From Bryum argenteum (lineage: Eukaryota > Streptophyta > Bryopsida > Bryales > Bryaceae): DNA of 64,000 bases. Below are positions 9,358 through 57,480 of this stretch, piece after piece. The position numbers and the translations under genes were made by a program. Each line of letters starts with the position of its first letter. The stretch's first letter is position 1. The notes under the pieces were generated by a model. The model did no database searches and was not told where the DNA came from. It was given only the letters and a program-made list of their open reading frames with translations. The stretch is taken from assembly GCA_037043015.1 (NCBI GenBank), contig CM073324.1:24196097-24260096 (forward strand). The letters run 5' to 3'.

Positions 9358-9775
9358 CAATATCAAAACTCAAATCTGCTAAATGAATCTTACATAAATT
9401 ATACTTCGACTTATTATTGTGATTTTTAGTAGTAAAAAGAAAACGCCAAGGTAATGTACTGTACATTGTATGTCAACATCACCATGATACTTTTATGAAC
9501 GCAATTCCCGCTAATTTGATAACAAAACCTTTCTACGAAAGAAAAAAATAAATAAGAGAACTTTTGTAACCTATCATGAAATAAAGTAGGTTGTAAGAAG
9601 TACACTTACTACCGAAGGTTTCGAACATGGAAAAATCCATGTATTCGGTACAATGATGCACATACAATTTTCACTTATATAGTTGCTTGAAACTCTCCCT
9701 CGTTCCTACAAATCGACTTCTGCATTGTGCTCAAAATGTCGATGCTTAGTGGAAGAAGAATGTTTCTCTCCTACT
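9358..9775 (-). pseudogene. Stray copy of an epsilon-tubulin exon with intron flanks
   Basis: This stretch matches 17115-17518 in the same orientation along almost its whole length with moderate divergence. The matching part of the real gene contains its next-to-last coding exon (17349-17458). In this copy both splice borders survive: an acceptor ending in GCAG near 9722 and a GTAAGTG donor near 9602-9608. The exon reads [15 protein letters not shown], then a TGA where the real gene has CGA (Arg), then LYVHHCTEYMDFSMF. Only this exon and its flanking intron sequence were found here, so it is a dead DNA-level fragment, not a processed (reverse-transcribed) copy. Confidence 0.85.
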
Positions 9776-9810
9776 TAGATTTATAACCGTATTTACGCCT
9801 TTTTCTACAA

Positions 9811-16923: not shown

Positions 16924-19900
16924 CTACTGGAGCTCTGCTGTGACAGGTTGCAACCGCATTAGACGTTCAGGGGCTTTCGTTGCCTCCAAAGTTTCGTACT
17001 CCTCAATAAGATCTTCCAACATATCTATCAACACATGAAGTTCAGAAATTCTGAGCTCAAAAATGTTATCAGAGTCTTTCCAGTATATGATCATTAAATT
17101 GTTACTTCATTCTACAATATAAAACTCGAATCTGCTAAATGAATCACATCTTAAATTCTACTTCGACTTGCTATTGTGATTTCTAGTAGAAAGAAAACAC
17201 TGACGTAATGTAATGTACATTGTATTTCAACGTCACAACGCATTCCCCGCTAGTTTGATAACAAGATCTTTGTACGAAAGTATGAAGTAAATGAGAGAAC
17301 ATTTGTAATCTATCATGATAAAAGGACAATGTAAGAAGCAACACTTACTACTTGCAGTTTCGAACGAGGAAACATCCATGTATTCTGTATAATGATGCAC
17401 ATACACTTTTCGCTTATATAGTTGCTTGAAACTCTCCTTCATTCCTACAAATCGACTTCTGCATTGTGCTCAAAATCTTGATGCTTAGTAGACGAAGAAT
17501 GTTTCTATCCTACTTGGCTTGAGAATCACGATCGTTCACACTTAATTCAGACAGAGGCACCAATTGGCAATTGAATCATTCTGCACACAGAATACCTACA
17601 CAAGCGGATTCTGGTCGCAGAAAACAGACTTACCGTATGCATGTGTTGTTGGCCAAGCAAAGAAGAGAGCAAGGGCTGTGCACTGCGGGTTGACTGCACA
17701 GTCCTACTTTGAAACCTTCCACATTCCAATGCGCCTGTGGTGGAGAATCAGTTTCCGAGAATCACATATTCCAAAGTTTCATAATATTACAAATGGTTAG
17801 CTGACTGGTGGGCTAACCATGGTGAGCCGATTCTTCAGTCGAGCAACATTCTCTTGGAGATCAGAAATGGTGCAGACGTTTCCTCGCATGAGGAGTGCAC
17901 ATGCTAAGTAGGTCGAGCCGGTTGGATTCACTTTCATCAGCTGAGTCTCCCTTGAAAATACCTCTGTGAAGAGCTGTATCACCACAATGCAAAAATTCAA
18001 GGTGAACAAAACATCTTGCAAGGTTGTCATTTTCAGATAAGTTATAGTTTCTGAATGGAAGTATCTTCACAGACCCGATTGATTGCTCGCTGCTGATTTC
18101 CTGTTTGTACACCGCGGAAAAGCAGAATCAGAGACATATAACATTCTTAGAACAAGGGGAGCATATATATGAAATATGTACACAAGCCATTCTTCTCAAA
18201 GCTCAATATTGGATATAAGTTATGACAACTTCTTCAACACCACTCAATCACGGCTCACCAACATTCTGATGATTAAGAATCAGAAGGGATTCTGCGAATG
18301 TTTATTATGTTTGTTACAGTTTGACAACATTCTTCGATTCACATTATTGGATAGGGAATGAGACTGCACCGAATGGAGAAACAGGAGAACAAGGTGACAA
18401 GCTTGACGTAAGGTAATGAAGTCGTGGAAATGGCACCAAGTTCATGGTTATCTCGTTCAGATCAACTGCGTTTTAGCCATAAACAAAAATTCAGATAGCC
18501 ATGGTTTAGTCTTATCTGCTGAAGAGGGTATTAATACATGAATCCGGTTGCAATAATCGGGTTGAAAATCTACTCTGTCACCTGAAGCTAGTACAAGGAA
18601 CATAACCTGATATACCTCTTTTTTCAGTGTTTCCGTTCCTACAGGGTTTATGTCAGCATTACCGTTCAAAGGTCCCTCGAAGCGCATTGAACTGGTCAAA
18701 TGAAGCAGAAGATTTGAAGCGATGCTGTTCATTTCGTCAAATGGTTTTGTCACTTTTGGACTCCATCGTTCGGCAACAGGGTTTACTTTCTTCTTTGCGC
18801 CAGCCGCGTCCTTCTTTCTACACAATTTCAAATAGAGAAGAGTGAAACTTGCACATTTTTGACAAAGATTCTTCCCACAAATTTTGACAGACACTAAAAT
18901 TTCACGTGTTGCAAACTCCTCTATTTAAATGGCTTCACAAGGAAAGCGGTAGGAACCTGATGATGTCAAGCAGGGCCTGGTTTTCAACAGGTAGAACACA
19001 ATCGGCATGTTCAGTCAGTGCAACTGTCGATAGAAGACTGCATACGAAGTAACTGTTAGGGAACAATCACACCATGAAAACAAAGGTAGTGCTGATCTAT
19101 CTTGCACTACATAATATTTGCGGTAGCGAGTCAGATTTTCAATGTATTAGACGTTCAAAACAGGTCAGACATAGTAAGCTAAAAAACCAGACTTGAAGCT
19201 CTACTTTTTCATTTCAAGGTGTCGAAGATAGATGATTCACAACAGATTGATACATCCTCCACAGCAAACATAGGGCATAATCAGTTTAATCAGATGATAG
19301 TGCAAAAGAGGACCTGTTGTAGGGGGAGGTAATGACGTCGTCATCTGCAGACGGGAAAATGCTTTGTGTAAAGCGATAAACCTCAGGGTATGCGTCCTGC
19401 AAAGGTCAAAAATAAACTATGAAGATAGCTTGTACAGAAAAGAATCTCCTCGTACTTAAGTCATGCAACTCTGGCCACGGTCCTTCAAGGTTGCGGCACC
19501 TTAGCTGCGAGCAATTTATGTGACGGCTAAGCCACTGGATCACTCACATGGAGTAACTCCAGAATGTAGCTCCCAACACCAGATCCGGTGCCACCCCCAA
19601 TTGAGTGCATCATCACGAAAGTTTGAAGGGACTCACACGATTCGGCCTGCAAAAGGAACCCATGTTTCAAATCCTTTGCTTTACGAGTAACCCATATTGT
19701 GCCATGCTCCACAATTCTAGCTCAGGCCAGACATTCGCGTAATTTGGAGGGATATATATTTAAATTCAAGAAAGTCTTAAACAACTCTTAAAAGAGAAGA
19801 AATCCATGTACATGGCCGTGGCATGAAAGTGCAAAATGAAGCTACATACCTCGCCCCTAATCTTCTCAAGAATGGCATCTGAGAACTGCGGTCCATACAC

Positions 19901-21076
19901 TTCATGTGCTTGTGCCCTGATGATTCCAAACATTTTCAATTGTCAATTGTGAATTTCTAGGATTTGCTTCACTCACCGAGAAAATGAAAATTACGACTAT
20001 AGCATCTCGAAATGCTGGTATTTTGAGCACTCTAAGTAGCTTCAAACGTCTTAATAGCTTTAAACGTGTTCAAGGCTAATAGAATGACGTGCTTGGGTAT
20101 TACACCAGTTGTTGCCGGACCCAGAGGCGCCTGTAATGTACTGTTTCCTGTCAAACAACTCTGCTAGAGATCCCTGGAGATTCAATGCAAGTGACAATGT
20201 GATTATACATGAGGTTATCTTTTTATGAGTACGTTATTCACGATTCTGAGGTATTGATAGTCGATAGGTGCTTGATAAAATCCCTTATCCATTTATGCTA
20301 CCCTAAACATCACCTTGTGTTGAATATTGTGAGACAAGGTACAAACACTATACTACTTTGATTGCTCTTCTAAAAAGTGGAGTGTATCATTCATGGGTAA
20401 TTTTCTTCGGATAGTTATCGAGCTAAGCTGAATGAGCAAATGGAAGAAAGCTTCTAACACCTTGAGGAGCTGGTTGACGACGCTCTCCTCCATATCTATC
20501 AGCACTGCCCTGGCCTGGAGAGAAAATCACAAACCTTAGAAGCGGAATAGCAGCTCGAATGACTGAAATCAGATTGGATAGCAGAAGGGCTGCCTCACCT
20601 TTAAGAAGTGAATTGGATTGTTGCCATCGCCTACAGATAGCTCCCGAGGTGGCGAGTATCGTCTGTCCACATTATGAAAAAAACTGGACACGAAGAAGCT
20701 GCTGTCAAGATTTGCAAGAATCATCATGGCCGCACTCGATAGAGAATTTGCAGCGTACTAGCGCCTCACCCAGAACGCTCAAAGCATTGGACTCGTAGGC
20801 TCTTGAGCTTACCTGCTTAAAGCGTGATCAAAGACCATGTCAGGGTTACATGACGCGTGCTCCCTCAATGCCATATCCCAGAACCGGCATCCGATCTGCA
20901 CACAGGATTGTTAACGTCTAATGTATCGAATCCTACTCTGACCTAATTCAAATTAGTCTTTTAACACAACGTTTACGTAAATAAAAAATCATACTGCAAA
21001 AGAAAGGAGATCAAATTTGAACACGTACCTGATTTCCACATTGGCCTACTTGCAGCGTAATAATTTCTCGCGGCAT
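16924..21076 (-). CDS. TUBE1: Epsilon-tubulin
   Basis: A tubulin of centrioles and basal bodies, needed for triplet microtubules. Fifteen exons are traced on the minus strand: 21029-21076, 20813-20895, 20599-20683, 20461-20514, 20106-20173, 19850-19916, 19548-19646, 19314-19396, 18957-19037, 18663-18817, about 18383-18465, 17818-17973, 17634-17734, 17349-17458 and 16924-17024. All join in phase except one unresolved junction, giving about 457 residues. Key pieces: QVGQCGNQ and [14 protein letters not shown] (N-terminus), [35 protein letters not shown] (GTP phosphate loop), [70 protein letters not shown] and [15 protein letters not shown]. The family's insertion after RWSPKV is retained. Oddity: the roughly 13-16 residues ending in PPRRLDQ, expected between exons 11 and 12, were not found, and the exon 11 donor is uncertain. 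The 5' part lies inside a duplicated segment. Confidence 0.92.
17115..17518. repeat. Source copy of the exon duplicated at 9358-9775
   Basis: Colinear with 9358-9775 in the same orientation, including intron sequence on both sides of the epsilon-tubulin exon at 17349-17458. This copy keeps the open frame and joins in phase to its neighbours, so it is the functional one. Confidence 0.85.
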
Positions 21077-22666
21077 TTTGACACCACGTACATCAGAGCA
21101 GCTGAGGTAATGGAGGAGAACCCAAAGAAGTTTAAGCGAAAGAGGTAGCTGAACACAGAGTTAAGTGTGATACTCTTCTCTCCCAGCAGGACCGCCCGTA
21201 AGTCTAGAGCTTCAGCCTTAGACTGTGTCCACAATCCTGCAAAGTACCTTACCTCTGCGCCAAGAAGATCAATGAAAGGGCACCAGTTCTCAAGTTCCCA
21301 CCAAGCAATTCTTGGGCTTCCACGACCCCAGCAATCAAGTCATAAGATCAATTTCCACAGAGTTTCTCGTTTCAAAAATTAACAGATTCGATATTCCCAC
21401 AGCAATCAGATATTTAAAGCTCATGACGATGTATCTATTCATCAAACAATTTATTCTCGATTGAAATCTTAATTGGAACCATAGTCTTACATCAATTTTC
21501 CTAAATTTAGGGAGTTAACACTTGAACACACACTTACGATTCTATCACCTGTTGTGCTCTAGAACCCTTCATGAGCTCCAACCAACAATTCTATGATAAT
21601 ACACAGAACATTTTATTAAATATCAGAAGGACCTGGTAGACTATGGGCGCTTGAACAGAAGCATCAGCTTATATATGAGAAAATCAGAGGAATAAGGTAA
21701 GATTTGTGCTAAGCCCGCTGGTTTCATAGTATTCATGAGAACGAACCATGGATATGATTCGTTGATAGTGCCTCAGCGGCGATTTCAAGGGAGTAATGTA
21801 AGGTGCGGCAATCGTGGCAAGGGTTTCGGAAGGATCTTGTTACTCGCTGGCCATTACTTTTTGTTTTCTATAAGTGATGACAAAATGCTGCTGCTAGTCG
21901 AAAGAAGATGCAAAACATTGCCAGGACAAGCATATCAAGAGGGACGCGTCTGCGATCCAATTGCAAGCTTCGATTGAACTGGGAAGAGGTTCATACGAAA
22001 GCATGGCCAGCGTCGTCTAAGCGCTTGCAATCACACTGTGGACAAGCACTTCGATTATTGAGGCAAGCCAAGCTGCGCCCCGAATCCAAGCAAGTTGCCT
22101 TATTAGTGTCACAAAAGAAAGCGATGGAGATTTAAGCATTCAGTACGTACAGTAGAGAGTTCGTCCAGTATACCCAAACAACGGTTTTCAATATCTTCTT
22201 CTTTGGCACCACAAAACCCCTGGTCGAAGTCCAAAGCCAAAAATTATATGGGAACGATAACAGCAGCAATCTGCATAGCAAACGGACAATTACAGTCATC
22301 CAATGAATCCATAAATCCGGAATCAGCTCAATTGTAAGTGCAAGTGGAGTTGTTTAATGGGGTCAGCCGGATGAAGGTTATGATACGTACGGCAACGATC
22401 GATCTAGGTTCGGAATCGTAATAAGAACATGATGTCATCCAGTACCGACTCAGATGATACTCAGATACAGAGTACATCCTGGTATCACTAGAATGGACTT
22501 TTGAAACACGCAATAGCTAGGTTAATAGCGGATAAGATCCACCCACCTGCGGACGTTGACTGATAAGCACAATGAAATTGCCCAAGAAAGTAATTGCTAA
22601 TTGAACTCAAGCAGCACGAACCAGAACCGGACGAAGTGAGCAGCTGATTGAACTACAATTTAAGGC
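20424..22666. repeat. Segmental duplication, copy A
   Basis: Colinear with 25832-27596 in the same orientation, with several indels. From left to right it contains epsilon-tubulin exons 4 to 1 (the functional 5' end of that gene), the intergenic spacer, and a dead copy of the 3' end of the ABCG transporter. The match starts near TAAGCTGAATGA and ends near GATTGAACTrCAATTT. Copy B lacks the part matching about 20,790-21,260. Confidence 0.9.
21840..22666 (-). pseudogene. Duplicated 3' end of the ABCG transporter, dead
   Basis: This matches the last exons of the ABCG gene at 26790-27596. It still shows FLGNFIVLISQRPQV near 22,550 and the C-terminal KVMAS followed by a stop at 21840-21842. The exon that begins IAAVIVPI hits an in-frame TAA immediately, where the functional copy reads IIIGFW. 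There is no nucleotide-binding domain or start. It is a leftover of the tandem duplication, ending at the junction with the GC-rich island. Confidence 0.85.
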
Positions 22667-23181
22667 TACGTTATTCCCCGGCGGGCAGCGGCATGCGCGG
22701 GCAGCAGGGGCGCCACCCCCCCAGGTGGGATTCGCTTCATGCTGCGGGTCGCCCGCCTCGCATGCACACGCCCTGCACGCAACCCCGACGCTTGCCCGCG
22801 AGCAGGCCATGAGATCTCCCCACGCCACTGTCGCCCCTGCCTCTGCCTACCTCGCCGTGAGATCCCCGCCATTGCTGGGCCATCGCAGCCGCTGAGTCAC
22901 CTCCCACTGCGCTCACTATGTAGCTTGCTTGCGTGCGTGCCCAGGCCGGGCGCCCTGTGCTGCAAGTGGTCGCACACCCTCCCTCCCCCCTCTTGCCTCT
23001 CTCCCCCGGTTTTTCACATATTGCCCGAGCAACTCCTGCCATCCCTCGCACTGTTTGTATCTGTCAGCGACTACGATCCCTGCGCTGTCTCGCGGAACTC
23101 CGATCGTGGGTCCGTGTGCAAGTCCTCGAGCTGGGCACGTGCACGTCACAGTATGGGGCAAATTGCCTGGCAGCTTGAGTA
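22667..23181. other. GC- and CpG-rich stretch at the duplication junction
   Basis: Base composition changes sharply at the end of copy A, from AT-rich to clearly GC-rich, and stays so through the neighbouring gene. Overlapping open frames on both strands here are Arg-, Ala- and Pro-rich, as expected from the composition alone, so I do not call a gene. Confidence 0.55.
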
Positions 23182-23676
23182 TCAATTCCCCTGAATAGTG
23201 GCTTTTTTTACGAACTGCTGCAATTCGGCAACCGATTGAACTCCGGGAGCAGGTGAGAGATGGGAAAATGGGGTGGGCGTGAGCTGTTCCTGTAGAGCGA
23301 GATCGTAGTTGCTGCAGAGTTCTTTTACAATCGGAGTCGTGCTATTTGTGTGGCGGTGTCGATGGGCCCCATCGGAATGATCAGATTTGTGCCCGTCGTC
23401 TTGAATTGTAGAAATCGAAGTTGTGGTAGTTGATGTCAACGAAGAGTCCATTTCCTTGCTGCCCAGAAAAAACCTGGACAAGAGACTTCTTCCAGAAGAT
23501 TTGATGTCTGTCGAGTCTGGATCGTAGAAGCAGATGAATTTCACGTTCTGATTAAGTCCTGACAGGTGCGAATTGACAGCTCGGGACCAATCTTGCATGT
23601 TGAGATGGCGTATCTGCAAGCCGCAACCGCTTGTGTAAGATTGCACCTGACGCTTACATATTGCCTCATCAATCAT
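23182..23676 (-). CDS. Hypothetical protein, 164 aa
   Basis: An uninterrupted frame from an ATG at 23676 to a stop at 23182. I do not recognise it. The N-terminal half looks like real protein (LQIRHLNMQDWSRAVNSHLS, then NVKFICFYDPDSTDIKSSGR, then SLLSRFFLGSKEM). The middle is Ser/Thr/His-rich and probably disordered, and the end is helical (QSVAELQQFVKKA). It is divergent from the N-demethylase-like gene, with about 590 bp between the two starts, which could be a shared promoter. It may be one exon of a larger gene or a chance frame in GC-rich DNA. Confidence 0.4.
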   Translation of the reverse strand: MIDEAICKRQVQSYTSGCGLQIRHLNMQDWSRAVNSHLSGLNQNVKFICFYDPDSTDIKSSGRSLLSRFFLGSKEMDSSLTSTTTTSISTIQDDGHKSDHSDGAHRHRHTNSTTPIVKELCSNYDLALQEQLTPTPFSHLSPAPGVQSVAELQQFVKKATIQGN

Positions 23677-23885
23677 TTCCTTACTCGAGTTTCCCTTTCA
23701 ATTTCTTGCTTTTCAACTGTCGCAGCCCAGGCAGCCTCAAGAAGCGGAGATTGCAGTTGTCTAGCGGCTCACTGTCTACGCTGTTCCAATTAACTCTACC
23801 GTCATCCGACGTGGACTAATTATTACCCTCTTGATACGGAACAAGATGGAACGAACTTTCACTAATCAAGCTACTTTGCGTGCAG

Positions 23886-24002
23886 GTGCAGAGAAACGAT
23901 TTGCGCGCCCTGCACATGAGTACGTGGATCAACCGCCCTGCGTCTTTCATCACAGTGGATCGCCACTGCGCAAAATTCGGTGCGGCAGTTCCCAATCACT
24001 GC
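23886..24002 (+). other. Candidate orphan exon, 39 codons
   Basis: A stretch bounded by GCGTGCAG on the left and GTAAGTGG on the right is open in one frame for exactly 39 codons and reads VQRNDLRALHMSTWINRPAS, then FITVDRHCAKFG. The residue mix is protein-like and both splice signals are good. I do not recognise the family. It may be a 5' exon of the downstream gene, part of another gene, or chance. Confidence 0.3.
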
Positions 24003-24265
24003 GTAAGTGGTTTTCTGCGTTTGCGCCCCCATTCGTTTTGTTCAGATGTCATTGCACTTGCAAGACGTGCTTCTCGGTTGAGAGGAGAGTGATTTCTTCT
24101 CGTTTCTGCAACTGATATATCCGGGGATGGGGTTCGTCGCCCATGATGTGTGAACAGACTTCACCAAGCCGACATGGGCGACGACAACGACTGTGCATCG
24201 TCCGAGCAGGGGGCTGTCCGTTCGGATTCAAAAGTTCGATCGGTAAAGGGCACCGCGAATCATGT

Positions 24266-25724
24266 ATGGAAACTAATGTTGCTGCGACTGCCAGTGCTCC
24301 TGTCAGCACTCCCTTCGAAGCACCAGCTCCATCCGCTGAGGCATCCGACAGCGTCAACCTGGGACCTGGTTCGATCTCGCTGCCCTTACCCCTCCCTCCC
24401 GCTATTGTCATTGATCTCTTGCACGCTCAGTTGCCAATCGTCTGTTCTTTTCATATCTAATCGCTCTGATGAGAACAAGCTTGCATCGCGTGGTGCATTT
24501 TATTTTCCAGGAACATTTGAGTACTTGCCGTTGACGGTGCCGTTCCGAATGACAATGGGCACAGAGCCGCTCAACATGAAGGACTGGATTGAGATTGATG
24601 TGTTCTATGACGAAGAAATGGCCCTGCGCAAGGAGATTCTCCAGAACCGGAAGGAAATGTCCATTTTCAGCAGACCCGAGGCTGCGGATGCAAATTGGGA
24701 AGCTCTGGAGCTATTGGCGGAGTTCCTTCCGATGCGGTTTCCAGATCGATTTTGTCAAGACGGCAACACGTTGTGTAACCTCACTACGGGGGAGCGGTTT
24801 AACATCAGTGACAAGTCCCTGAATCCACTCGAAGTGACATCGCGTCTCGTCCAGGTGCGTCCATGTCTATCCATTCGTCGTTCGTGTGTTCTTCCGTCCT
24901 TGCTTGCCCTGGTTGCACTTTCCTTACAAAACCTTCTTTTCGTAAACCTGTGGAGAAATTTTCCCTTCTGAGTTTGAGTTTGAGTTTCATCGCTATTTTG
25001 GATGATTCCTGCATACGATTACGTCACCTGCTTCACTCTCCTCATCAGGAGATTATGTGGCGCATTGCCCAGTTGATTGCCCTATACTAATATGTGTGTG
25101 TTGTTCTCGGTGATGTTGCAGGAGGACGTGTGTGTGCTGATGAAGGTGGAAGGCACCTTTCGCCTAGTTTCGGGCGTAGTGTTGTTTCCGCAACGATGGC
25201 AGTTGCTGGAGAAGATGGGCTTGGACATCGAGGCCATTCACCGGCCAGTGCCTCGCTTTGCAGATGAGCTCGCCAATGCCGTCAATCAGTTCATGACTCG
25301 CTTAAAAGTGGGCAAACCCGTGTGGCGTGCAAATTGGGCCATTGTGGACGACCCCTCGCTTTTCCAACCGTTAAGTGAGGAGGACATCTACGCTGCCCTG
25401 CAAGACCAAGTGACGTCGACGAACAGAAAGCACCACTGGGACGACGTCCATGGCCAGGGATTCAACGTGGGGTCTCGGCTGTTCACCCGGTGCGAGCGGG
25501 AGACGTTGATGCGATTGCCGAAGACGAATGCCGTTCTCTTCACCATTCGGACGTACGTGAGGCCCCTGACAGTGTTCGAATCGCGACCTCTGCTGGCCCA
25601 GCAGCTAGTGCGCGCCCTGGAAACACTACCGGAGTCCATCACCAAGTACAAGACCATGGCCGCGTTCTACGACGTTGCTCTCCGATACCTGCGCCAATGT
25701 GCCAGCCAACCCGCTCAATCTTGA
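24266..25724 (+). CDS. DUF3445 / haem-dependent oxidative N-demethylase alpha-like protein
   Basis: Three exons, 24266-24368, 24511-24854 and 25122-25724, join in phase (GTTCGA and GTGCGT donors, TTCCAG and TTGCAG acceptors) to give 349 residues, a normal length for the family. Family landmarks in order: VPFRMTMGTEPL, DWIEIDVFYDEEMALRKEIL, LLAEFLPMRFPDRF, EDVCVLMKVEGTFRLVSGVV, LFPQRWQLLEKMG with AIHRPVPRF, RANWAIVDDPSLFQP, TRCERETLMRLPKTNAVLFT and IRTYVRPL. Bacterial relatives oxidatively demethylate secondary amines using haem; the substrate here is unknown. The family is best known from bacteria and fungi. The gene is GC-rich, unlike its neighbours, and sits between two copies of a duplicated segment. 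Exon 1 is inferred from phase; the start could lie further upstream. Confidence 0.88.
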
Positions 25725-25754
25725 TCCATCCAACTACCCGCTCCGCCACGTCTC

Positions 25755-25822
25755 GGCGAGTTCAACTCCAATTGCATAACGCATGGACTGCTCTTTCCAT
25801 ATCTCCTCGTTGTCTGCGTATG
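25755..25822 (-). pseudogene. Shard of the ABCG second nucleotide-binding domain
   Basis: About 68 bp match the ABCG gene at 29109-29174 in the same orientation. Read on the minus strand they encode EEIWKEQSMRYAIGVELA, against EEILKEQSLRYAIAVELA in the gene. The shard lies between the stop of the N-demethylase-like gene and the start of duplication copy B. It is separate from the duplicated 3' end. Confidence 0.82.
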
Positions 25823-25831
25823 CTTGTCGTG

Positions 25832-27596
25832 ATAAGCTGAATGAACAGACGGAAGAACGCTTCTACACCTTAGAGGCTGCTTGACGACGCTCGCCTCCAT
25901 ATCTATCAGCACTGCCCTGGCCTGGAGAGAGAATCACTAAGAAGCGGGATAGCAGCTCGAATGACTGAAATCAGCTTGGACAGCAGAAAGGCTGCCTCAC
26001 CTTCAAGAAGTGAATTGGATTGTTGCCATCGCCTTCAGATAGCACACGAAGTGGCGAGTATCGTCTGTCCACATAATTGAAAAGAACTGGACACGAAGAA
26101 GCTGCTGTCAAGATTTGCAAGAATCAAGATGGCCACACTCGTCAGGAACATTAGAGAATTTGCAGCCTACCCAGAACGCTCGGCATTTTTTGCATAGGTG
26201 CTACATTGTATATACAAAACCTCCTGATCAACAGCGAGATCAAATTTCCCACCAAGCAATTCTTGGGCTTTCAAGACTACAGCAATCAGGTCATAAACTC
26301 AAGCTCCAAAGAGTCTTTCGTTCCAGAAATTCACAGTATGATATTCCCAAAGCATTCAGAAATTCAAAAGCTCATGACCATAAAATTGATTTTGTTCATC
26401 AAACAATCTATTTCGATGTAGTCATGATCTCATTGATAGGGACCACAACGTTACATTATTTTCCTACACTTAAATGGGTTCACACTTGACAATACTATCA
26501 CCTCTTGTGCTCTAGGAGCCTTCTAGAGCTCCAACCCACAATTCTATGATAATGTACAGATCAAATACACCCTCTTAGATATCAGACGAACCTGGTAAGC
26601 TACAGGCGCTTGGACAGCAGCATCAGAGGGAAAGGGTGAGATACGTGCCAAGCCCGCTAGATGCATAGTATACATGAGAACAAACCATGACTGTGAGTCG
26701 TTGATTGTACCTCCGCAAAAGCGATGCGGCGATGTCAAGGGTGTACTGTAAGGTAAGGCCACCGGACCAGCTCGTGGCAAGGTTGCTTGCTACTTGCTGG
26801 CCATTACTTTTTGTTTTCTGTAGGTGATGACACATGCCGCTGCTAGTCGAAAGAAGATGCAGAACACGGCCAGGACAAGCATATCAAGAGGGACGCGACT
26901 GTGATCCAAGCTTCGATTGAATTGGAGAGTGGTCCAGACGAAAGCATGGCCAGCGTCGTCTAACCGCTTGCAATCGCACTGTGGACAAGCATTTGGATCA
27001 TTGAGGCAAGCCAAGCTGCGCCCCGAATCCAAGCAAGTTGACTTATTGGTGTCACAGAAGAAAGCGATGGAAGTTAAAGCATTCAGTACGTACTGAAGTG
27101 GGTTCGTCCAGTATACCCAGACGACAGTTTTCAATATCTTCTTCTTTGGCACCACAGAACCCCCGGTCGAAGTCCAAAAGCCAATAATTATGGGGATGAT
27201 GACAGCAGCAATCTGCATAATTAACGTACAATTCAAGCCACCCAATTAAGCCAAAAATCCGGAATCAACAAATTGATGGAGTTATTTAATGGCTGTCTGC
27301 CGATGACGATGGTGATCACTAGCTCATACGGCAACGATCTAGGTAATTCTAAGATGTCATATATACCCAGTACCGACTCTGGTGTTACACGGATAAAGTG
27401 TACATCATGGTATACTCAAATGGACTTTCAAAGTACGCAATGGCGAGGAGAATAGCGGATAAGATTTTCACCCACCTGCGGACGTTGACTGATAACCACA
27501 ATAAAAATGCCCAAGAACGTAATGGCTAGATTAAACTCGAGCAGCACGAACCAAAACCGGAAGAACTGAGCAGCTGATTGAACTGCAATTTGAGCC
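25832..27596. repeat. Segmental duplication, copy B
   Basis: Colinear with 20424-22666. It contains a dead 5' piece of epsilon-tubulin on the left and the functional 3' end of the ABCG transporter on the right. About 470 bp present in copy A, including epsilon-tubulin exons 1 and 2, are missing here near 26,190-26,230. Confidence 0.9.
25840..26190 (-). pseudogene. Epsilon-tubulin 5' fragment, dead
   Basis: Copies of exons 4 and 3 of the gene at 16924-21076. The exon 4 copy still reads [17 protein letters not shown], with substitutions. The exon 3 copy has a one-base length change at its start, so its frame is lost. Exons 1 and 2 and everything downstream of exon 4 are absent. Confidence 0.85.
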
Positions 27597-30500
27597 ATGA
27601 GGCAAAACACAAAACATACAAGCAGAGTCGACAGTGCCATGTATGGTACCTGCCATTGAAAGGGCAAAGTTGGTCACCGAACGAAAGCAGAGGTAGTGCA
27701 TGACACGAAAGAGAAAGAGAGACAAAATTAAACTAGCATGAGAGAAAATTAAACTTGATACTCTACTATGCTTAGTAAGAAGATATACTTCGCGCGCGGT
27801 AGCTAAATGAACCATCAAAATTGGAATTTAGAGAACTCAATCTCATGGACACAAGGTGGTGCAAAACAAGACGTGAACATCAAGTGATTATTGTGCTACT
27901 CAATAGCTGCAAACATACTGTTGCCTGGGTTAATAAAGACCGGATGCTCAGTTGTGGAGACTGGAGATAATACAGAACGGGGTACCTAGAAACATAATAG
28001 CTGGATTCTTGAGATGTACATTACCTCCCCAAAAGTCCAGGCCAAGTTGTGCAACCAGACACTGTACTGCTGTGTCGCTTGATCTCTCTCCATCGTTGCC
28101 AGCATCCTCAGTAATAGAGGCACAACGCTCTGGGCATTGCTTAGAGACAGCAGTGCGCACAGAATGAAGATACTCTGACTTTTGACAGTCATTTTCACCG
28201 TTGTGTGAGGATTGATGTTGAAATAGACAGTGCCCAAAATGAGAGCCAATATAAGAGCGCCTGTTATCCTCCCAAAATTGTAGCTCGTATTTCGCCAGTA
28301 GATTCGCTGCAATTTCAGCAGCACTTCCCAAGCCATCACTGAATACGGAGCACGGTAACCAGATTGCAGCAACACGGGTCCTCTGTGACCTTTAGATCGG
28401 CGAAGATGCTGCAGTTGGATGTGGTTACGAAGAGCTAACTCACTCACTCGATATTCGAAAGCGTAACCCCTGTGTGCCTTTTGTTGAGCGGCGCCATCAC
28501 CAATCACGTCCACGGCGTATGCAACTGGGTTCTTGTTTCGAGGGCAGCGTGGTGTGCCCGGGATAGATTCGAAGTATTTCTGCAAAAATCAGAATTCTAT
28601 CATTTTCCGAATAGTGTCCTTCATGCATTATTTGGTTGATCAATTTCAGCATGGCATCTAACGTGGCGGTCGGAGATATTTTATGAGATATTCATTGCTC
28701 AAGGGATGAGGGAGATCATATACAATGAGAAACTCTGCACCGGTTCCGACTGGACCAAAATAAGCTGTTTCACCACCACTTTTCAAAAGTTGAATGCTGC
28801 TGAAGGTGGTCAGCTCCCGCAGGCTTGGCTGCTGCAAACATGCGATTACTAGCTTCCCAGTGTCGGCTATCAACTGCAAGCATGCACACACATACCTGAG
28901 AAAAAGAATGAACAAGAACCCAAGTGTTCATTATCAGGAGTACTCTAAAACACTTGCTCTACAAAGATCAGGAAAATGGTAGCTGATCTATAAGAATGAA
29001 TAGCGACCGTTTAATATGCATACCTTGAGGCACTCCATAATATGACGAGAAGCATGACTATCAAGTCCTTTCATGGGCTCGTCAAGAAATAAGACACTTG
29101 GATTGCCAGCGAGTTCAACTGCAATAGCATAACGCAGGGACTGCTCTTTCAATATTTCCTCATTGCCTACTGACATGAGTAACATGTTCGAAATATGGCC
29201 AATTTGTACTAGGTTCATCACCTGCAAGCCCCGCACAGTCATCCACTACCATTAATGGCCCGCTGCTGTTGCCTGCAATCGGTTAACAAAGCTAACACGC
29301 CAATAAATGACATTGATACAAGGTTATTATAACCTCTAAGGAATTCAATTTTTATGTGCTGAATCTCAGTCAGAGTTATTAGACCCTTACTTCCTCAACA
29401 AAAACTTTTCGGTCTTTGAATTGTACTTTTTTGCTCAATGACATGGCGGCACTGAACTCTATTCCCTCCCGAACAGTCATATACGGAACATATGCCATAA
29501 TGTCTTCCACGTAACCTTCCACATGTGTGAAAGTCTTCTGAACTCTTTGATAGCCATTCACCAGTATTTGGCCTCCCATACGTGCGGGCGACACCTTCCT
29601 TCCTGAATTATATTAAACTTGTCACTGAGAAAGCTGGCAACAGGCAGGACTATGTCTAAGACAGAGAGATTGATACGTTTCTTCTACTATAGCAAACTAC
29701 GCAGAATTTAAACCTGTAGGAGGAGATGGATATAGAATTTTCACCGCTCCTCTAAAACATCTCAATGTATTACTCGTTAAAGAAATGAAATGGAATGAGT
29801 AATCGGCTCTACTTGCCTGCCAGACAATTTAAAAACGTCGTTTTACCAGCTCCATGACCTCCTAGAATTGCAACCATCTCTCCAGGCTTTCCAAACCCAG
29901 AGACGTAGTTGAGGACAGTTCGAGTTTGACCAACGGCTGGAATCACGACGTCGTAACTGAGCTCATGCCAGGATAATGTGACCGGAATAGAAGCGAGAGA
30001 AAGCTTGATTTCTTTCTGACCCCATTCTTCATCTACACTTTCGAGTTGAGGACTCCGCTTAAGTTTCTTCTGCAGAATCACAATTTCGGAAATGCATGCT
30101 CATTAGTTCCTTCGAGTACATACAATCTAATCAGAGAATAAATTAAACGCAAAAATATTCCGATTGTCCTGTCAACATATCTCATCAAGCTAACATACAC
30201 CGAAGAAGTTTGAGTACCACCTCTACATATGGAGAGAGAGTTTGAGGAGGGTGTCGCTTCTTAGCCAGAGCGCAATAAGCTCCGATGTTTAAGAGCACGA
30301 TCCAACCCAATAACACAGCAACAGCAACAGCTATCCAGCCGTAGCTTGTGTAGAACTGTCCTCGGGCTAAATAGGCATGGCCTACTGTGTTTGTTGCTCT
30401 GCCAACGCACTGAGGTAGACTTGCAAGGTTTGTCACTTGCCCACATAACCTGCTGTAGCCTTCTGAATTGAATTCGTTAATAACCAAAGCCGTGGTGGCC

Positions 30501-45589: not shown

Positions 45590-46023
45590 CGCCCTTTCTT
45601 CAACTATGCAAATGCAGGGGTAAACACCACCCATTTGAAGGAGTTGCAAATATGGGGGAGAGAATACACTCCCAAATTTGTAAGTTTCTCAAGTGTGTAA
45701 AACTCCCAAAAGAGTTTGGCCACTTCTTCAACTTACTACATTTTCAGAAGTCCCATTTCCCTACTACAACCAAATTCTCAAGCCCATCTGAACACTCCTC
45801 TAATGCCTCACACTCCCACATTTCCACGATCTTCAAGCATACTAACATTCCAAAGGTATTTAGCCCCTTCTTCTACTTTCTGCATTTTGAGAAGTCCAAT
45901 TCCTCTACCGCAACCAAATCCTCAAGCCCATCTCGAAACTCCTCTAACACCTCACACTCCCACATTTGCAAGTTCCTCAACCGTGCTAATCTCCCAAATG
46001 GATTTGGCCCCTTCCTCAACTTT
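45590..46023 (-). pseudogene. Decayed LRR tail beyond the frameshift
   Basis: The 144-bp LRR repeat continues past the current stop of the kinase-NB-LRR gene. At about 46,030 the usual GACTTCTCAAAATG has become AACTTTTTCAAAATG, one base longer, which brings an immediate TAG into frame. Two to three more repeat units follow downstream, recognisable (for example GLENLV-like and EECEALEE-like codons) but with several stops. They show that the array once extended to about 45,600. Confidence 0.8.
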
Positions 46024-49000
46024 CTACATTTTGAAAAAGTTCAATTCCTCTAATGCAACCAAATTCTCAAGCCCATCTGGAAACTCCTCTAACGCCTCAC
46101 AATCCCACATTTGCAAGTTCTTCAAGCACGTCAAAGTTCTCAAGGTATTTGGCCCCTTCTTCAACTTTCTACATTTTGAGAAGTCCAATTCCTCTAATGC
46201 AACCAAATTCTCAAGCCCATCTGGAAACTCCTCTAACGCCTCACACTCCCACATTTGCAAGTTCTTCAACCGTGTTAATCTCCCAAATGAATTTGGCCCC
46301 TTCTTCAACTTTCTACATTTTGAGAAGTCCAATTCCTCTAATGCAACCAAATTCTCAAGCCCATCTGGAAACTTCTCTAACGCCTCACACTCCCACATTT
46401 GCAAGTTCTTCAACCGTGTTAATCTCCCAAATGAATTTGGCCCCTTCTTCAACTTTCTACATTTAGAGAAGCTCAATTCCTCTAGTACAACCAAATTCTC
46501 AAGCCCGACTGGAAACTCTTCTAACGCCTCACACTCCTCCATTTGCAAAATCTTCAAGCGTGTTAATTTCTCAAATGTACTTGGCCCCTTCTTCAACTTT
46601 CTACATTGTGAAAAGCTCAATTCCTCTAGTGCAACCAAATTCTCAAGCCCATTTGGGAACTCCTCTAACGCCTCACACTCCTCCATTTGCAATTTCTTCA
46701 AACACGTCAAAGTTCTCAAGGTATTTGGCCCCTTCTTCAACTTTCTACATTTTGAGAAGGTCAATTCCTCTAGTGCAACCAAATTCTCAAGTCCATCAGG
46801 AAAATCCTCTAACGCCTCACACTCCTCCATTTGCAAAATCTCCAAGCGTGTTAATTTCCCAAATGTACTTGGCCCCTTCTTCAACATTCTACATTTTGCA
46901 AAGCTCAATTCCTCTAGTACAACCAAATTCTCAAGCCCATCGGGAAACTCCTCTAACGCCTCACACTCCCACATTCGCAGAATCTTCAACTCTCTCAATT
47001 TCCCAAATGTACTTGGCCCCTTCTTCAACTTTCTACATTTTGCGAACACCAAATTCTCAAGTGCAACCAAATTCTCAAGCCCATCGGGAAACTCCTCTAA
47101 CGCCTCACACTCCCACATTCGCAAAATCTTCAACTCTGTCAATTTCCCAAATGTACTTGGCCCCTTCTTCAACTTTCTGCATTTTGAGAAGTCCAATTTC
47201 TCTAATGCAACCAAATTGTCAAGTCCATCGGGAAACTCCTCTAACGCCTCACACTCCCACATTTGCAAAATCTTCAAGCGTGTTAATTTCCCAAATGTAC
47301 GTGGCCCCTTCTTCAACTTTCTACATTTTGAGAAGGCCAATTCCTCTAGTGCAACCAAATTCTCAAGCCCATCGGGAAACTCCTCTAACGCCTCACACTC
47401 CTCCATTTGCAAAATCTCCAAGCGTGTTAATTTCCCAAATGTACATGGCCCCTTCTTCAACTTTCTACATTTTAAGAAGCTCAATTCCTCTAATGCAACC
47501 AAATTCTCAAGCCCGTCAGGAAACTCCTCTAACGCCTCACACTCCCGCATTCGCAAAATCTTCAAGCGTGTTAATTTCCCAAATGTACGTGGCCCCTTCT
47601 TCAACTTTCTACATTTCGAGAAGCTCAAATCCTCTAATGCAACCAAATTGTCAAGTCCATCGGGAAACTCTTCTAATGCCTCACACTCCCACATTTGCAA
47701 GTTCTTCAAGCACGTCAAAGTTCTCAAGGTATTTGGCCCCTTCTTCAACTTTCTACATTTTAAGAAGCTCAATTCCTCTAATGCAACCAAATTCTCAAGC
47801 CCGTCAGGAAACTCCTCTAACGCCTCACACTCCCGCATTCGCAAAATCTTCAAGCGTGTTAATTTCCCAAATGTACGTGGCCCATTCTTCAACTTTCTAC
47901 ATTTCGAGAAGCTCAATTCCTCTAATGCAACCAAATTGTCAAGTCCATCGGGAAACTCTTCTAATGCCTCACACTCCCACATTTGCAAGTTCTTCAAGCA
48001 CGTCAAAGTTCTCAAGGTATTTGGCCCCTTCTTCAACTTTCTACATTTTGAGAAGCTCAATTCCTCTAGTGCAACCAAGTTCTCAATCTCATCTGGAAAC
48101 TCCTCTAAAGTGCCACATTGTAAAATATGCAATGTTTTCAAGGAAGTTAAAGTTGAGATATTGTTAGATGTTCTCGAGAAGGTATCATATCTGACTAATT
48201 TTATCATTTGATGATTGGTAAGCTTGTTGGCTTGTAGGGAGACTTTACATAGTCTTGAACATCTTATAAGCTCCAATCTCATCAAATTTGTAAAGTTGAA
48301 GAGGTTGATTTCACTAAGATTGCAATTCATCAATTGCAAACTTGAAAGTCGTTTCAGTTGAGGTAATAAGTCTGGAATCTCTTGAAATAAATTGCAATTG
48401 TCCAAGTGTAGTATGCGTACTTGAGGTAGGAATTTATTCTGGAAATTGCGCCAAAACATTTGGGCTGGAATTGAGTTCTTAATTGCATCATCCATTTTGA
48501 TGATCAAACATCTCAAAGAAGGAGTTTGTGAAAGAAGTTCTAAAATAATGTTGAGATCCTTTGATAAATGAAATACTAGTATTCGAAGATGGTTGTAAAC
48601 CAAACTTGTCATTCTTTTGTTATGGCTCTCGTAATTTCCAAACCTTGAAAGAGATAAGCCTTGAATCTTTTGTACGTCCTGTAAATCCCAAAATAGAAAA
48701 TTAATAATTCATCAAAGTAATAAAAAAATTCCAATAGGCCAAGTGATACATACTCAAAGCATACTTATAACAACAAAAAGTAAGGTTAAACTTGCCTGAC
48801 AATTACATTCATCAAATGTAGCCATATGTAGATTTCGATAGTGAGATTGTTGCTCATGCGCAATCCTACGACCCATGTCGCGTAGGTGGTCGTGTATGCT
48901 TATGTATCCATACTTATCAATTTTCAATAGTGATCTATCCTTGAGATGATAAAGAGAATGTTTAGACATTGAAACATCTTCATTAGCAAGGAGAGATACT

Positions 49001-51665: not shown

Positions 51666-54600
51666 AACAATTTAATTTATTGCACCATTACATGCATTCT
51701 TAAAAATCAACCACTTAAAAAATATCGAAGAGCTAGAGCAATTTCAATAACTAACAGAACTCACACTTAATAAATGAGCCACACTCACACTACAAGAGTC
51801 GTAATTTTGGCTTACAATCAAGAAACATTTCTCTATCGTACTAATAGCATCTCTTTGAACAGTCTCTCGCATGGATGTAGAATTCATCTTTACTTACTAT
51901 GTTCAAATATACACCTCACTCACATTCTTTTCACAAATTCATTATAATATTAGTCACATTCTTCAATGTCAAAAAATGACCATAGAACTGTAACACTTGA
52001 CAATTCCATAGTTTCCGAGTTGTAATGCTTGCTTTTCAACACCTCAAATTGCTCTATAAAATGCATACTAGTAGGCAAACCTTCACTTTGCCTTTCTTCA
52101 AATTGGAAGAATGTGGGTGGTCATTGTTAAGCTGAACATTTCTCAAATGGCAAAAGATAAAACAAATCTTCTCAATTTATCCCTAATTGCCCGCTCAACA
52201 ACTTCATAGTCCCTCCCATATTTTATGGAGTTGTTAACTTCCAGAAAAACAAAAGCGAAGAAAATTGTTGTCTAGATGGTTCAGTTCCAAACCCAATTTG
52301 TAGCAGCTCATTACGTATCATAGATTGTCCACCCGAATCTTTCATGAACAACTAAGGAACGGTTTTCATAATGATGGGAAAGTTCCTATTTCAAGGAATT
52401 TACGGTCTATCAATTCGTTTAATTATGACAACTTTCAATTTCATCATATGTTTCAGAGTTTATGCCACTCATATCAAACACTCAATTCTAAAAACATCAA
52501 GTGCGATTACTGATCCTTTATGCAGATTCACTCTCTTGAATTGACTGCATACTAGATAGTTATTATCTCAAGGAATTTAATATTTTAAGGAAATAATGCA
52601 TAATGATCTTATTTAAGCATTTAAGTCTTCATGTTATTACTCAGAAGAAGCTTCATGAGAGATAGCAGTTACACGATTTTCAGCAAATGTAGATTTCTCT
52701 TCAAACTGCTTGGACCTTTGGGGTGCAACACAGTTCTTATATTCGATGTGTTTCGTGAACTGTGACATAAGTATCTCCTGATCTCATGAAAATGAACATG
52801 GATCAGAGAAGCGTACAAAGAATGGGTGAATCTTCCGACTTGCGACACACAAGAAAACGACCAGATGAAACAACTCTCTCAAAACAGACTTCTCCGACAA
52901 AGAATAGGAAAGTATAAACTCCTGCTTGAGCACGAGGAAGCAGTGAGTCTGCATCGCAATAGAATCTGTCAACGCACAGACCCTCGCAGACTACACAGGC
53001 TCCGTCTTAAAGCAAGTCCGATACCGGCCACAGCACTAGTTCTAGAGAACCCAGCCTCCGGATGAGCATGTAGGGAAGAGAGAGGCAGAGGCAAACATAC
53101 CTGATCGGGAGTGATAAGAAACGAATCAGAAAGAAAGCAGCTATAAAAGCCGATAATATGAACCAGTAGCAAAAGAGCGACTCCAAGAGACAGGAACACA
53201 AAGGCAGGAGACACGAGCGTAAGCGATGGCGATGAAGGCAGGAGCATGAGCGATTGCAGCAACAAAAGGGTGAGCAAAAGCACGAAAGAGACGCTCCTCG
53301 GCTGTCTTATAGGAGTGAGTCGGGCTGCAAAAGACTACTGTTCATTCATACTGTACTTCCGTTATTCTATACGGTATGTATGTATGTACATAAATAATTG
53401 GAGTGGAAGTGCTCACGATCTGCACGCAATCTTGGAGATAAGATCGTGCCAGGCCATTTTCTTCATTGAAAACTCGCAAGTTGCTCTTGCTCTGTGCAAT
53501 TACTTGACTTTATCTGTGGAGCGCTTCATGGCGCGGCCTTCTGTCGGAGTTCTGCTTTGTCGAGGAGTTGGAATCTGTGTGAGCAGACTTCGAGGAAGAA
53601 AGTCTTTCTGCCATGGCTTTCAGGTGGTAGGTAGGATAAAAAAGATTGATTCCTTGTGAGTGGACGTGGAGATAGAGGTTTTGTGGTTTGGTGTAAAAGT
53701 TTAAAAAATTGTAAAAGTTTACAATTGGCATATTAGAAAAAATCAAAGACGTAGTATTTAGAATTTGGTCAATGTCGAAAAGAGCCCAAAACGGGTCGTT
53801 TGGGGTCTGGTCAGCATTGTAATTACTATATTCAACTCGCATGAAATTGAAACCTCTTGTAGGTTGTAGATTATTTTCATACCTTTCTGAAAAGTCAATT
53901 CATGCTTCAAAATTACTGATACTTCAGGAAATACTCACTGACAAAGTTTGAAAACAATATTTGAAATTTGCCTAAAACTGTCCAAACTGTGGTATATGCT
54001 TGTTTGTCCTCAAAATTTGTCCAAAATAAACAAGGTCGTAGGAACTTCAAAAATTCACCAAAATTTGAGATTTTACTTTCTTTTCAAGTTTTTTTTTTTT
54101 TGTGCTTGGAAATAAGTTTAAGGAAAAAAAAAAAAAAAAAATCAAAAGTATATCCCTTGCAGGAAAATGGAAGCCATATCTTTCTTACATCTTGGATGGA
54201 TTTAAGGTTTCTATCATGCGCTATTAAAATGGGAATCCACCCCAAGAAACAAAGTTAAAATCCAAGGGAAGATGAAGAAGAAAAGCCCCCCAACAACTGT
54301 TTATTTTTTCGATTTTTTTTAGTATAGAAACATCATTGCAAACCCAATACCTATAAATATTCAAATCAAAAATCTTCCAACTAAAAAGTTATTGGAACTC
54401 ATCTTAAGAGCATAATTATGGACTCAAAATTCATAAAAAACTATATCTGGGTTTACATGATTGATTCTCTATGCTAAAACATGCCTAATGTTTGAAAACC
54501 CCAAAACAAGATTTGCCTTCACTAAAATGCATGGTTGCTATAAATTCATACTTTCTTGTATGAGTATGCAATTTTCACCACAAAAATCAGACTTGATTTG

Positions 54601-57480
54601 GAACCTAATCCAAAAAATTATTTAATTCAAAACGGTCTCTACATGAAGAAGTTATGGCTCTCCAGAGTTGGTGGTTGTCATCCAAAATGTAGTTTTTTGA
54701 AGCTCTATATGGATAGGTGTTGATTTCTAAATTATATTAATATTTGTCAAATTTCTTAAAATGTAAACAATATATTTTGTAATGAAATTATCTCCTCTAG
54801 ATCCTTCATGCAAAATTGCCTAAATTTTCAAAAAAGAGTTTTCTTCTACTTAGGCGCTAAATAACTTAATCTAAGCATTATTTAGAAGGTTTGATCATAG
54901 GATCTGAAAGTAAACTTGACAATTCACTCACACGCTAAATTTGAACCCTAAGTTCTTTCTTATTTGTGAGATCATAATGGTCATAGTTGGCTAAATTTTT
55001 ACCCTCGAGAAATTTCAAAAAACCATTTTAGCTTTCATGAATACTTAAGGGTTATAATAAGAGACTAAACCTTTTTAAATAGAAATCACACTTTTAGATA
55101 CCAGTGATTGAAAAATGATTGAAAATCTTTAGTATATGACAAGGTAGAAAAAGGCCACCAATTTCTCAAGAAGAATACAACAAGTTTCCCCTAAAAGTAG
55201 GTATTAAAACACCAATAAGCAAACCTTGCCCCCGTTTGTATCTGAAAGATTAATGTAAACAATCTATAATTCCAAACAAGACTTTCTAGATTGAATGTGG
55301 TTCCCAACCTACCAAACTATCATAAATTATAAAACTATCAACTTAACCCCTAACTTTCCTTAAAAACCAAAACGGTCTTTTGATGTTTTGGGTAGCCTTA
55401 GTTTCTTAGTAAAAATGAATATTTTTGAGATATTTTTTGGAATTGTGTGAGTTACATTGCAAAGTAGGTGTGGCAAAAATTGCAAAGTCAAATTCCAATT
55501 TTTGAGTCTTCTAGGGCGATCCTTGGGTTGTGAGCCGAGATGGGGTAGCTCAAATAAGTAACTTTTTTGAATTTTTTTTTTGAAACATGTTCTTTACTAA
55601 ATCACTACTCAAATTTCAAAGTGACTCAAGTCAAAAAGTTTACCAATTTTACAAGGGCAGCCTTCAAAAATTTCAAAACCAATCTTCGCAATGCCCAAAA
55701 AAACTTGGGAGACAAACTTTGAATGTTATAATCTCTCAAATGGTAAACATCCAACGGTAAATTTTTTGAACAGTAATCAAGCATATTCTTAGGTACAAGA
55801 TCTTACGGTTGGAAGTCTTAAAAAAGGAGAAGAAATTGGTCCACACCCCCACGAGTGCTTAGAGGTGGAGAATCGCAGTTTTGAGTTTTCAAGCTCCCAA
55901 AAAACACCAAGGAAATTTAGGGGTTAATACAACTTCTCCACATATAGAATCAATCATACAATGGTTGATTGAACATCTAGGAGTTGGGTTACAACTATAT
56001 TTACACCAAACAACATGGCAATGTCAAGAATGTGACGACCAACAACCTAAATTTATACCAATATGAGGTAAAGCAACAAACAAACCTTAACTTATGTAAC
56101 AAAATATTTGGTCACTAATGGCTACTGGTCACTACTTGTTCACCCTGAGAGGAGGTAATAGTCCTACATCATTGTTGTTATGTCATGTGGGCATATCATC
56201 AAGGGCAGGTCGAACAAGCATTTATTCACACCAACCCTACAAGGGTTTGATGTTCTTAATTAACAGGAGTTAATACACTTTGTTCCAAGAAGATATACGT
56301 ACCTTTCGTGCATTACCACATCTTGAATTGACGCAAAAAATCAAAGTAATTTAATTTATTTAATTTATTTTTTATTTCTGCACACGGAGCATGAAGCTCG
56401 TGTAATGTTTTAAAATATAAATAAAATTATCATACAAAGACCGCTTCCTGGCTGTGCTTAAGGAAAAAATCAAGGCGGACATCCCCATGCAGAGGATGGA
56501 GTTGGGAGTGGATTGATTCAAGTGCCTTGATTTTATTCAAACAATGGTAGAAAATGTTGACTATTGGGACCACAACATGTGAACACCATGTGACCTTGTC
56601 CCTCAACAATAGACCTGTCTGTCAGTCAGTCAATACATGTGCTCTACTTTGCTGAATGGCAGGCCCATTTGCTACCACCAATTTTTGTACAGTACTGTGA
56701 TGGAGGGGAATACAGTAAGGTAGAATGCTGAAAATTTCCACAATCAACTAACTCTGGTCATGTTTGTATTTCTCTCAAGTTCATTCATGATGCCCAAGTG
56801 CACTATTCATAATGCCCAAGTCCAAAAATGCTGTGATCCATTTGGGCTGCCCGTTTCAGACCCATGGGCATTTAGGGTTAAACGAACACAAAAAAAAGGA
56901 CAGTGAAGAGCACAAGGAAGTGAAGTTGAAGACCGCAAAGCCCAGAAAAGCTACTTCATCTCTGCATTGCAGCATCTGGCGATATTTCTTCTTCTGTCTC
57001 ATCCAAGCAGGTCTCTAAGAAGCGCATTGGGGAGTGCTACTTTTGACAAAATCCTAGCTCTTCTCTCACCGAAAAGTATCATTCAAGTTTGTTATTCGTT
57101 ATTGTGTGGAGAGCGAGGAGAGATCCAGGTCGATTGTGAAAGACATACTTGAACAAGCATGTGAAAGAGAAGATTATCAAGTTGCATGCTTACAGGACGC
57201 TATTATGTTCGGGTTTTTATCGATGTTTGTAGGATTGTGACTGTGTTGTGTTGCTTGCTGGTGCAGCTTGTTTTGATACAACTCAGCCGGATTTATATGA
57301 ATGTGTTGCCATAATTGAGCAAGTCATCCTTAGTTTCTGTTTCCGAGTGTTGATCGAATGCGAGATCCAGGCTCCAGCTTTTAACACCAGCGCCAGCAAG
57401 GGGGAGAATTGGACGGAATCAGGTGGAGGATGTTGAGCAAGCAACAGATTCTTCTCACCACAGGTGCAAATCTTTTGCGT
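51666..57480. other. AT-rich region, no recognised gene
   Basis: 51,666 to about 52,700 is the presumed promoter side of the immune receptor gene. A minus-strand frame at 52969-53283 is very hydrophobic (Leu/Ser-rich) and could be a signal or membrane exon ending at a GTATGT donor, but its first codon is GTG and no partner exon is clear. From 53,900 to 56,400 the DNA is AT-rich with long A and T runs (for example 54,093-54,140). Plus-strand frames at 56812-57018 and 57248-57436 have no motif. Confidence 0.5.

What the first reader, a model, noticed from the sequence alone, without database searches (positions are those of the whole stretch)
20424..27596. Tandem duplication with an unrelated GC-rich gene at its junction
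Copy A (20424-22666) and copy B (25832-27596) are colinear and in the same orientation. Their layout, functional epsilon-tubulin plus dead ABCG 3' end, then dead epsilon-tubulin 5' end plus functional ABCG, is exactly what a tandem duplication with one breakpoint in each gene would leave. Between the copies, where they should touch, lie 3.1 kb of GC-rich DNA with a DUF3445-type gene. Insertion of foreign DNA at the moment of duplication, or a later insertion at the junction, are both possible.
Basis: partly seen in the sequence, partly recalled or inferred. Interest (0 to 1): 0.75.

Follow-up and report, generated by a model that had tools for sequence, protein, structure and literature searches.

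The report
Copied gene beside tandem-duplication joint
A plant-like genome holds two copies of one enzyme gene, each lying between the halves of a different small tandem duplication, which suggests that the gene was copied into new places by the same DNA-copying accidents that duplicated its surroundings.

Summary
The tandem duplication is real (78-86% identity, colinear; one apparently live and one dead partner per gene). Three corrections. (1) The point where the copies touch survives at about 25810-25815: ABCG sequence (25756-25815, 88% identical to 29109-29168) runs into epsilon-tubulin sequence. The GC-rich block lies just beside it, inside copy A, in place of about 1.5 kb of ABCG. (2) The block (22670-25741, a three-exon HODM/DUF3445 gene, PF11927) is not foreign: it is a colinear, intron-containing relative of a block on contig C5. 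(3) The C5 block also lies between the halves of an unrelated tandem duplication with the same logic: DDI1 plus a Lon 5' piece, HODM gene, DDI1 fragment plus Lon. Indel densities at the three duplications agree; substitution ages agree only if dead copies evolve about 2.4 times faster, as one dead HODM copy does. I favour template switching during repair (layout of a "cycle of templated insertions") that duplicated the host segment and pasted in the gene together. Donor, direction and simultaneity are unproven; no other moss genome was held to test the ancestral order.

The parts
20401..22664 (.). Copy A of the tandem duplication (genes on the minus strand): 5' part of the apparently live epsilon-tubulin gene and the dead 3' end of ABCG
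21836..22353 (-). Dead last-exon region of ABCG in copy A (two in-frame stops, frame change)
22665..22669 (.). About 5 bp of unassigned sequence between copy A and the block
22670..25741 (+). GC-rich HODM/DUF3445 block shared with C5:13133890-13136696
24266..24368 (+). HODM gene exon 1 (my model; start ATG shared with C5)
24511..24854 (+). HODM gene exon 2
25122..25724 (+). HODM gene exon 3 with stop codon
25742..25755 (.). About 14 bp of unassigned sequence between the block and the ABCG piece
25756..25815 (-). 60-bp ABCG piece, 88% identical to 29109-29168; end of copy A if the duplicated unit reached 29168, or a short extra templated piece
25810..27594 (.). Copy B: dead epsilon-tubulin fragment and the 3' end of the apparently live ABCG gene
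29109..29168 (-). ABCG exon stretch whose copy lies at the joint

Best explanation
Repair-linked copying with template switching duplicated the host segment and, in the same episode, pasted in a 3-kb copy of the HODM/DUF3445 gene from another locus. In steps: (1) synthesis running through epsilon-tubulin and ABCG broke off in ABCG at the position equal to 27594; (2) it resumed on an HODM-gene template elsewhere and copied about 3.07 kb, introns included, to 17 bp past the stop codon; (3) it returned to ABCG for 60 bp (29109-29168); (4) it re-entered the host locus upstream, in epsilon-tubulin near 20401, and re-copied the segment. This leaves the observed order. An event of the same kind made the C5 locus, where the re-copied host segment is DDI1-Lon. 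Shown here: the anatomy of both loci, the joints, the copy relationships and purifying selection between the two HODM genes. Inferred: that copying and duplication happened together, the order of steps, template switching as the mechanism, and the donor.
For: The block is colinear with C5 along its length, introns included. The C5 copy has the same layout around unrelated genes: 13130194-13133558 repeats as 13136701-13142308 (six pieces, 68-81%), the right copy starting about 5 bp after the strictly shared block ends; DDI1, Lon. C5 was found by following the block, so it is an independent replicate. In 167 kb of held sequence (5 stretches) only 2 other direct-repeat pairs of 250 bp or more with 0.5-10 kb spacers were seen outside tandem arrays, so both intact HODM copies lying at such a place is unlikely by chance. 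Gap openings per 100 bp agree: block 1.57; C4 A/B 1.56 and 1.30; C5 left/right 1.53 and 1.48. The dead C3 copy has 56 private noncoding differences against 23 in C5 (1041 columns), about 2.4 times; applied to block K 0.145 this predicts about 0.25 for live/dead pairs, against 0.255-0.278 at C5 (introns and Lon 5' pieces) and 0.292-0.349 at C4. The 60-bp ABCG piece is what a short extra switch would leave.
Against: Uncorrected, the block (K2P 0.145, 95% 0.111-0.183) looks younger than both duplications (C4 A/B downstream 0.292, 0.216-0.374; C5 introns 0.255, 0.182-0.328), and the correction rests on one dead copy. Stretches of the duplications with coding or UTR sequence give lower values (0.098 tubulin part, 0.143 DDI1 3' part). 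Both blocks end at the same base, 17 bp past the stop codon, which random switching does not predict. C5 has about 330 bp of unique sequence between the Lon break and the shared block. No clear microhomology; fillers of about 5 and 14 bp. The two other HODM relatives are not seen between tandem copies: the C3 copy (53 kb examined, truncated and split by an insert) and the old C3 paralogue (10 kb).
Confidence: 0.5

Rival explanations
1. Two steps: an ordinary tandem duplication of about 20401-29168 came first; later a break in the redundant, dead ABCG of copy A was patched with a copy of the HODM block, deleting about 1.5 kb.
For: The ABCG/epsilon-tubulin joint is direct and free of the block; the copy-A counterpart of 27595-29108 is missing, without trace in the block; raw substitution distances make the block younger than the duplication; a dead copy tolerates insertion.
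Against: The insertion would have to end about 60 bp from the joint here and about 5 bp from the joint at C5; indel densities of block and duplications agree.
Confidence: 0.25
2. Circular intermediate: an extrachromosomal circle carrying the HODM block joined to a piece of the host locus integrated by homologous recombination with that piece, leaving the block between two direct host copies (cattle Cs6-like; mechanism recalled).
For: Gives the same layout in one step.
Against: It needs a chimeric circle first; C4 and C5 blocks are in the same linear order, not permuted, and carry none of each other's flanks. [quoted passage not shown]
Confidence: 0.15
3. A mobile unit with fixed ends inserts and causes kb-long target duplication.
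For: Both blocks share both ends of the common part (right end 17 bp past the stop codon; left GTTATTCCCC) and lie between host copies.
Against: No inverted repeat of 25 bp or more in 18000-30000, no short target duplication seen by eye, introns present, no transposase seen in the block; C5 has 330 bp more on the left; the C3 copy has other ends; I know of no element with kb-long target duplications (recalled).
Confidence: 0.05

Closest known systems
Cycles of templated insertions (human cancer genomes, PMC7025897; passages read)
   Same: Copied segments from elsewhere are inserted and the path returns to the host chromosome, re-replicating a host segment, so that the insert lies between two direct copies of it.
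   Different: Described as somatic cancer events; here in an assembled plant-like genome, old (roughly 15-35% noncoding divergence), a few kb in size, with a gene under purifying selection, and seen at two loci for one gene.
Cattle Cs29/Cs6 serial translocation (Durkin et al. 2012: title seen in the reference list of PMC12235870, whose passages were read; circular mechanism recalled)
   Same: Duplicated host segment with DNA of another chromosome beside it.
   Different: About 500 kb in cattle; no permuted order or carried-over flank seen here.
Gene movement by break repair and patch-mediated tandem duplications in grasses (Wicker et al. 2010; Vaughn and Bennetzen 2014: titles seen in reference lists; not held; content recalled)
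   Same: DNA-level copying of genes with introns into breaks; insertions linked to tandem duplications.
   Different: As recalled, the rice duplications are short; here duplications of about 2.3-3.8 kb enclose an unlinked gene.
HODM_asu-like / DUF3445 family (PF11927; PDB 5lte)
   Same: The inserted gene matches the profile and a solved haem-dependent oxidative N-demethylase (E 1.5e-27).
   Different: Eukaryotic gene with two introns; function untested.

Membership tests
Cycle of templated insertions | A host segment is present twice in direct orientation | tested here: met
   C4 and C5
Cycle of templated insertions | Between the copies lies a copy of a segment found at another locus | tested here: met
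   C4 block matches C5 along its length; direction of copying not established
Cycle of templated insertions | Insertion and host duplication arise in one event | tested here: inconclusive
   Indel densities agree; raw substitution distances differ and agree only after a correction from one dead copy
Cycle of templated insertions | Joints with microhomology or short fillers (recalled feature) | tested here: inconclusive
   Fillers of about 5 and 14 bp; ABCG/tubulin joint without filler; no clear microhomology
Circular-intermediate insertion (cattle Cs type) | Permuted order or carried-over flank of the source (recalled feature) | tested here: not met
   C4 and C5 blocks in the same order; flanks unrelated
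DNA transposon | Terminal inverted repeats and short target duplication | tested here: inconclusive
   No inverted repeat of 25 bp or more in 18000-30000; shorter repeats not searched, ends only read by eye
Retrocopy | Introns absent | tested here: not met
   Both introns are present in C4 and C5 by my gene model
HODM_asu-like (PF11927) | Profile match above the curated cut-off | tested here: met
   250.7 bits against 25
HODM_asu-like (PF11927) | Haem binding and oxidative N-demethylation | not testable with these tools
   No biochemistry

The most novel reading that the evidence does not exclude
In this plant lineage kb-scale tandem duplication and gene transposition are one process: a break-repair pathway repeatedly pastes a defined 3-kb HODM gene unit into host genes while duplicating the host segment, so that one live copy of each broken gene survives. 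Gene dispersal would then carry its own backup copy of what it breaks.
Probability: 0.15. Interest if true: 0.75.

Novelty: new variant of a known kind. Interest (0 to 1): 0.52.

Why it matters
If insertion and duplication are coupled, a gene can land inside other genes without destroying them, because the same event leaves one uninterrupted copy of each. That would be a route for dispersing genes in plants that needs no transposon, and it can be looked for genome-wide: unlinked gene copies lying between direct repeats of their host site. Two unrelated loci carrying the same gene in the same layout make this directly testable in related mosses.

Tried and rejected
Assembly artefact: rejected, since copies at 78-86% identity are far too diverged. 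Foreign block: not supported, since it has a colinear relative on C5 and further relatives on C3. A scan of prokaryote genomes with the 349-aa protein gave 11 pattern matches, none a relative by tblastn; that says nothing about older origin. Retrocopy: rejected (introns). HODM gene as an original neighbour of DDI1 or epsilon-tubulin: would need larger duplications plus deletions at both loci; not testable without outgroups. Hidden ABCG remnants in the block: none found by blastn. The 330-bp C5 stretch: no other place found in the genome search (whose counts are lower bounds) or in the window and 30 kb of C5. A base-rate control from random regions was planned but not possible (below); the 167 kb were held because they lie near these loci, so that control is only a rough guide. 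Literature: nine searches; among the rows listed I saw no report of this layout in a plant, but listings were capped, most subscription papers are not held, and two key papers were not held.

Full report
Setting. The window is C4:24196097-24260096 of an unnamed 258.8-Mb genome in 25 contigs. No relatives of this genome are held, so all comparisons are within it.

Self-comparison of the 64-kb window finds 20401-20758 = 25810-26170 (86%) and 21292-22664 = 26243-27594 (78%) in direct order. Copy B lacks the counterpart of A 20759-21291. ABCG in copy A has two in-frame stops and a frame change in its last exon. ABC2_membrane matches support ABCG.

The joint. The same search found 25756-25815 = 29109-29168 (88% over 60 bp, E 2.7e-14). 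The piece is open in the ABCG frame and runs into epsilon-tubulin sequence that begins at about 25810. That is what the joint of a tandem duplication reaching from 20401 to 29168 should look like.

The block. 22670-25741 carries a three-exon gene for a 349-aa HODM-like protein. It is colinear with C5:13133887-13136699, at 80% in the 5' piece and 91% in the 3' piece. The coding parts of C4 and C5 are constrained: dN 0.029-0.032, dS 0.158-0.190, 23 of 167 four-fold sites different. A third, partial copy on C3 (14816755-14818237 plus 14793804-14793881) is split by an insert of about 22.8 kb, lacks the rest of the gene and has other ends; a fourth relative on C3 (5635153-5636821) is old (71%). The block is thus a relative of DNA present elsewhere in the genome, not foreign DNA that came with the duplication.

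The second locus. Around the C5 copy, 13130194-13133558 repeats in direct order as 13136701-13142308 in six aligned pieces at 68-81%. The left copy holds the 3' half of an uninterrupted DDI1 gene and a 5' piece of a Lon protease gene; the right copy holds a DDI1 fragment with a frame change and continues into Lon. The strictly shared HODM block ends at 13136696 and the DDI1 fragment starts at about 13136701. On the left, about 330 bp of unique sequence, GC 46%, separate the Lon break from the shared block. Beyond the block, C4 and C5 share only repeat-like matches more than 10 kb from the C5 block (window 54338-54702). So the same gene lies at or beside the joints of two unrelated tandem duplications. 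The two other relatives show no flanking tandem copies, but one is truncated at both ends and the other is ancient.

Timing. Noncoding or mostly noncoding K2P: block C4/C5 0.145 (0.111-0.183), its short introns 0.150 and 0.331 with wide intervals; C4 A/B 0.292 (0.216-0.374) downstream of ABCG, 0.349 (0.237-0.495) in an ABCG intron, 0.220 (0.182-0.266) over the whole ABCG part; C5 left/right 0.255 (0.182-0.328) in DDI1 introns and 0.262-0.278 in two Lon 5' pieces. Stretches with coding or UTR sequence are lower: tubulin part 0.098, ABCG last-exon region 0.127, DDI1 3' part 0.143, DDI1 first piece with exons 0.167. Four-fold differences: HODM 23 of 167, ABCG last exon 11 of 55. Taken bare, the block is younger than the duplications. 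But the tandem pairs are live/dead pairs, and the dead C3 HODM copy shows 56 private noncoding differences against 23 in C5 (1041 columns; 75 against 28 with coding columns). With that factor a live/dead pair of the block's age should show about 0.25, which lies inside the C5 and C4 intervals just given for noncoding stretches. Gap openings per 100 aligned bases are 1.57 (block), 1.56 and 1.30 (C4), 1.53 and 1.48 (C5). The ages are compatible with one episode; they do not prove it.

Mechanism. A copied distant segment between two direct copies of a host segment is the layout that PMC7025897 calls a cycle of templated insertions, in which the string returns to the host chromosome and re-replicates a segment of it (passages). 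The 60-bp ABCG piece fits an extra short switch. A circular intermediate integrating by homologous recombination would give the same layout; I see no mark that favours it, and in Physcomitrella the published passages found integration products with linearised but not with circular plasmids (PMC5675891). A later insertion beside an existing joint is the main rival and must explain the same near-coincidence twice.

What is not explained. The shared parts of the two blocks end at the same base, 17 bp past the stop codon. If one locus was the donor for the other, copying must have stopped at the donor's own joint; if a lost third locus was the donor, it must have had a boundary there. This keeps the mobile-unit reading from being dismissed.

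Verdict. A real, old, complex tandem duplication with a copied gene: a known layout of rearrangement in an unusual setting, raised in interest by its recurrence at a second, independent locus.

Noticed in passing
window 45666-48108: 17 copies of a 144-bp unit (87% match) with strong GC skew; the minus-strand frame 46024-48708 is open for 894 aa that read like leucine-rich repeats of a plant resistance-type gene (by eye).
   Followed up: partly
C3:14793881-14816755 (L022 4882 to L021 4256): An insert of about 22.8 kb splits exon 2 of the C3 HODM copy; near its ends lie inverted repeats (48 bp, 85%) and a 9-10 bp direct repeat flanks it, like a large DNA transposon.
   Followed up: partly
window about 24975-25094 (HODM intron 2): About 120 bp found at places on C9, C7, C2, C3 and C5 and apparently absent from the shorter C5 HODM intron; looks like a small dispersed repeat.
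   Followed up: no
C5:13141240-13144962 and C5:13201801-13205499: The Lon 5' region of the right copy is found again about 60 kb away at 94% identity.
   Followed up: no
window 9358-9776 and 17115-17515: A further direct repeat pair, 421 columns, 82%, about 7.3 kb apart.
   Followed up: no
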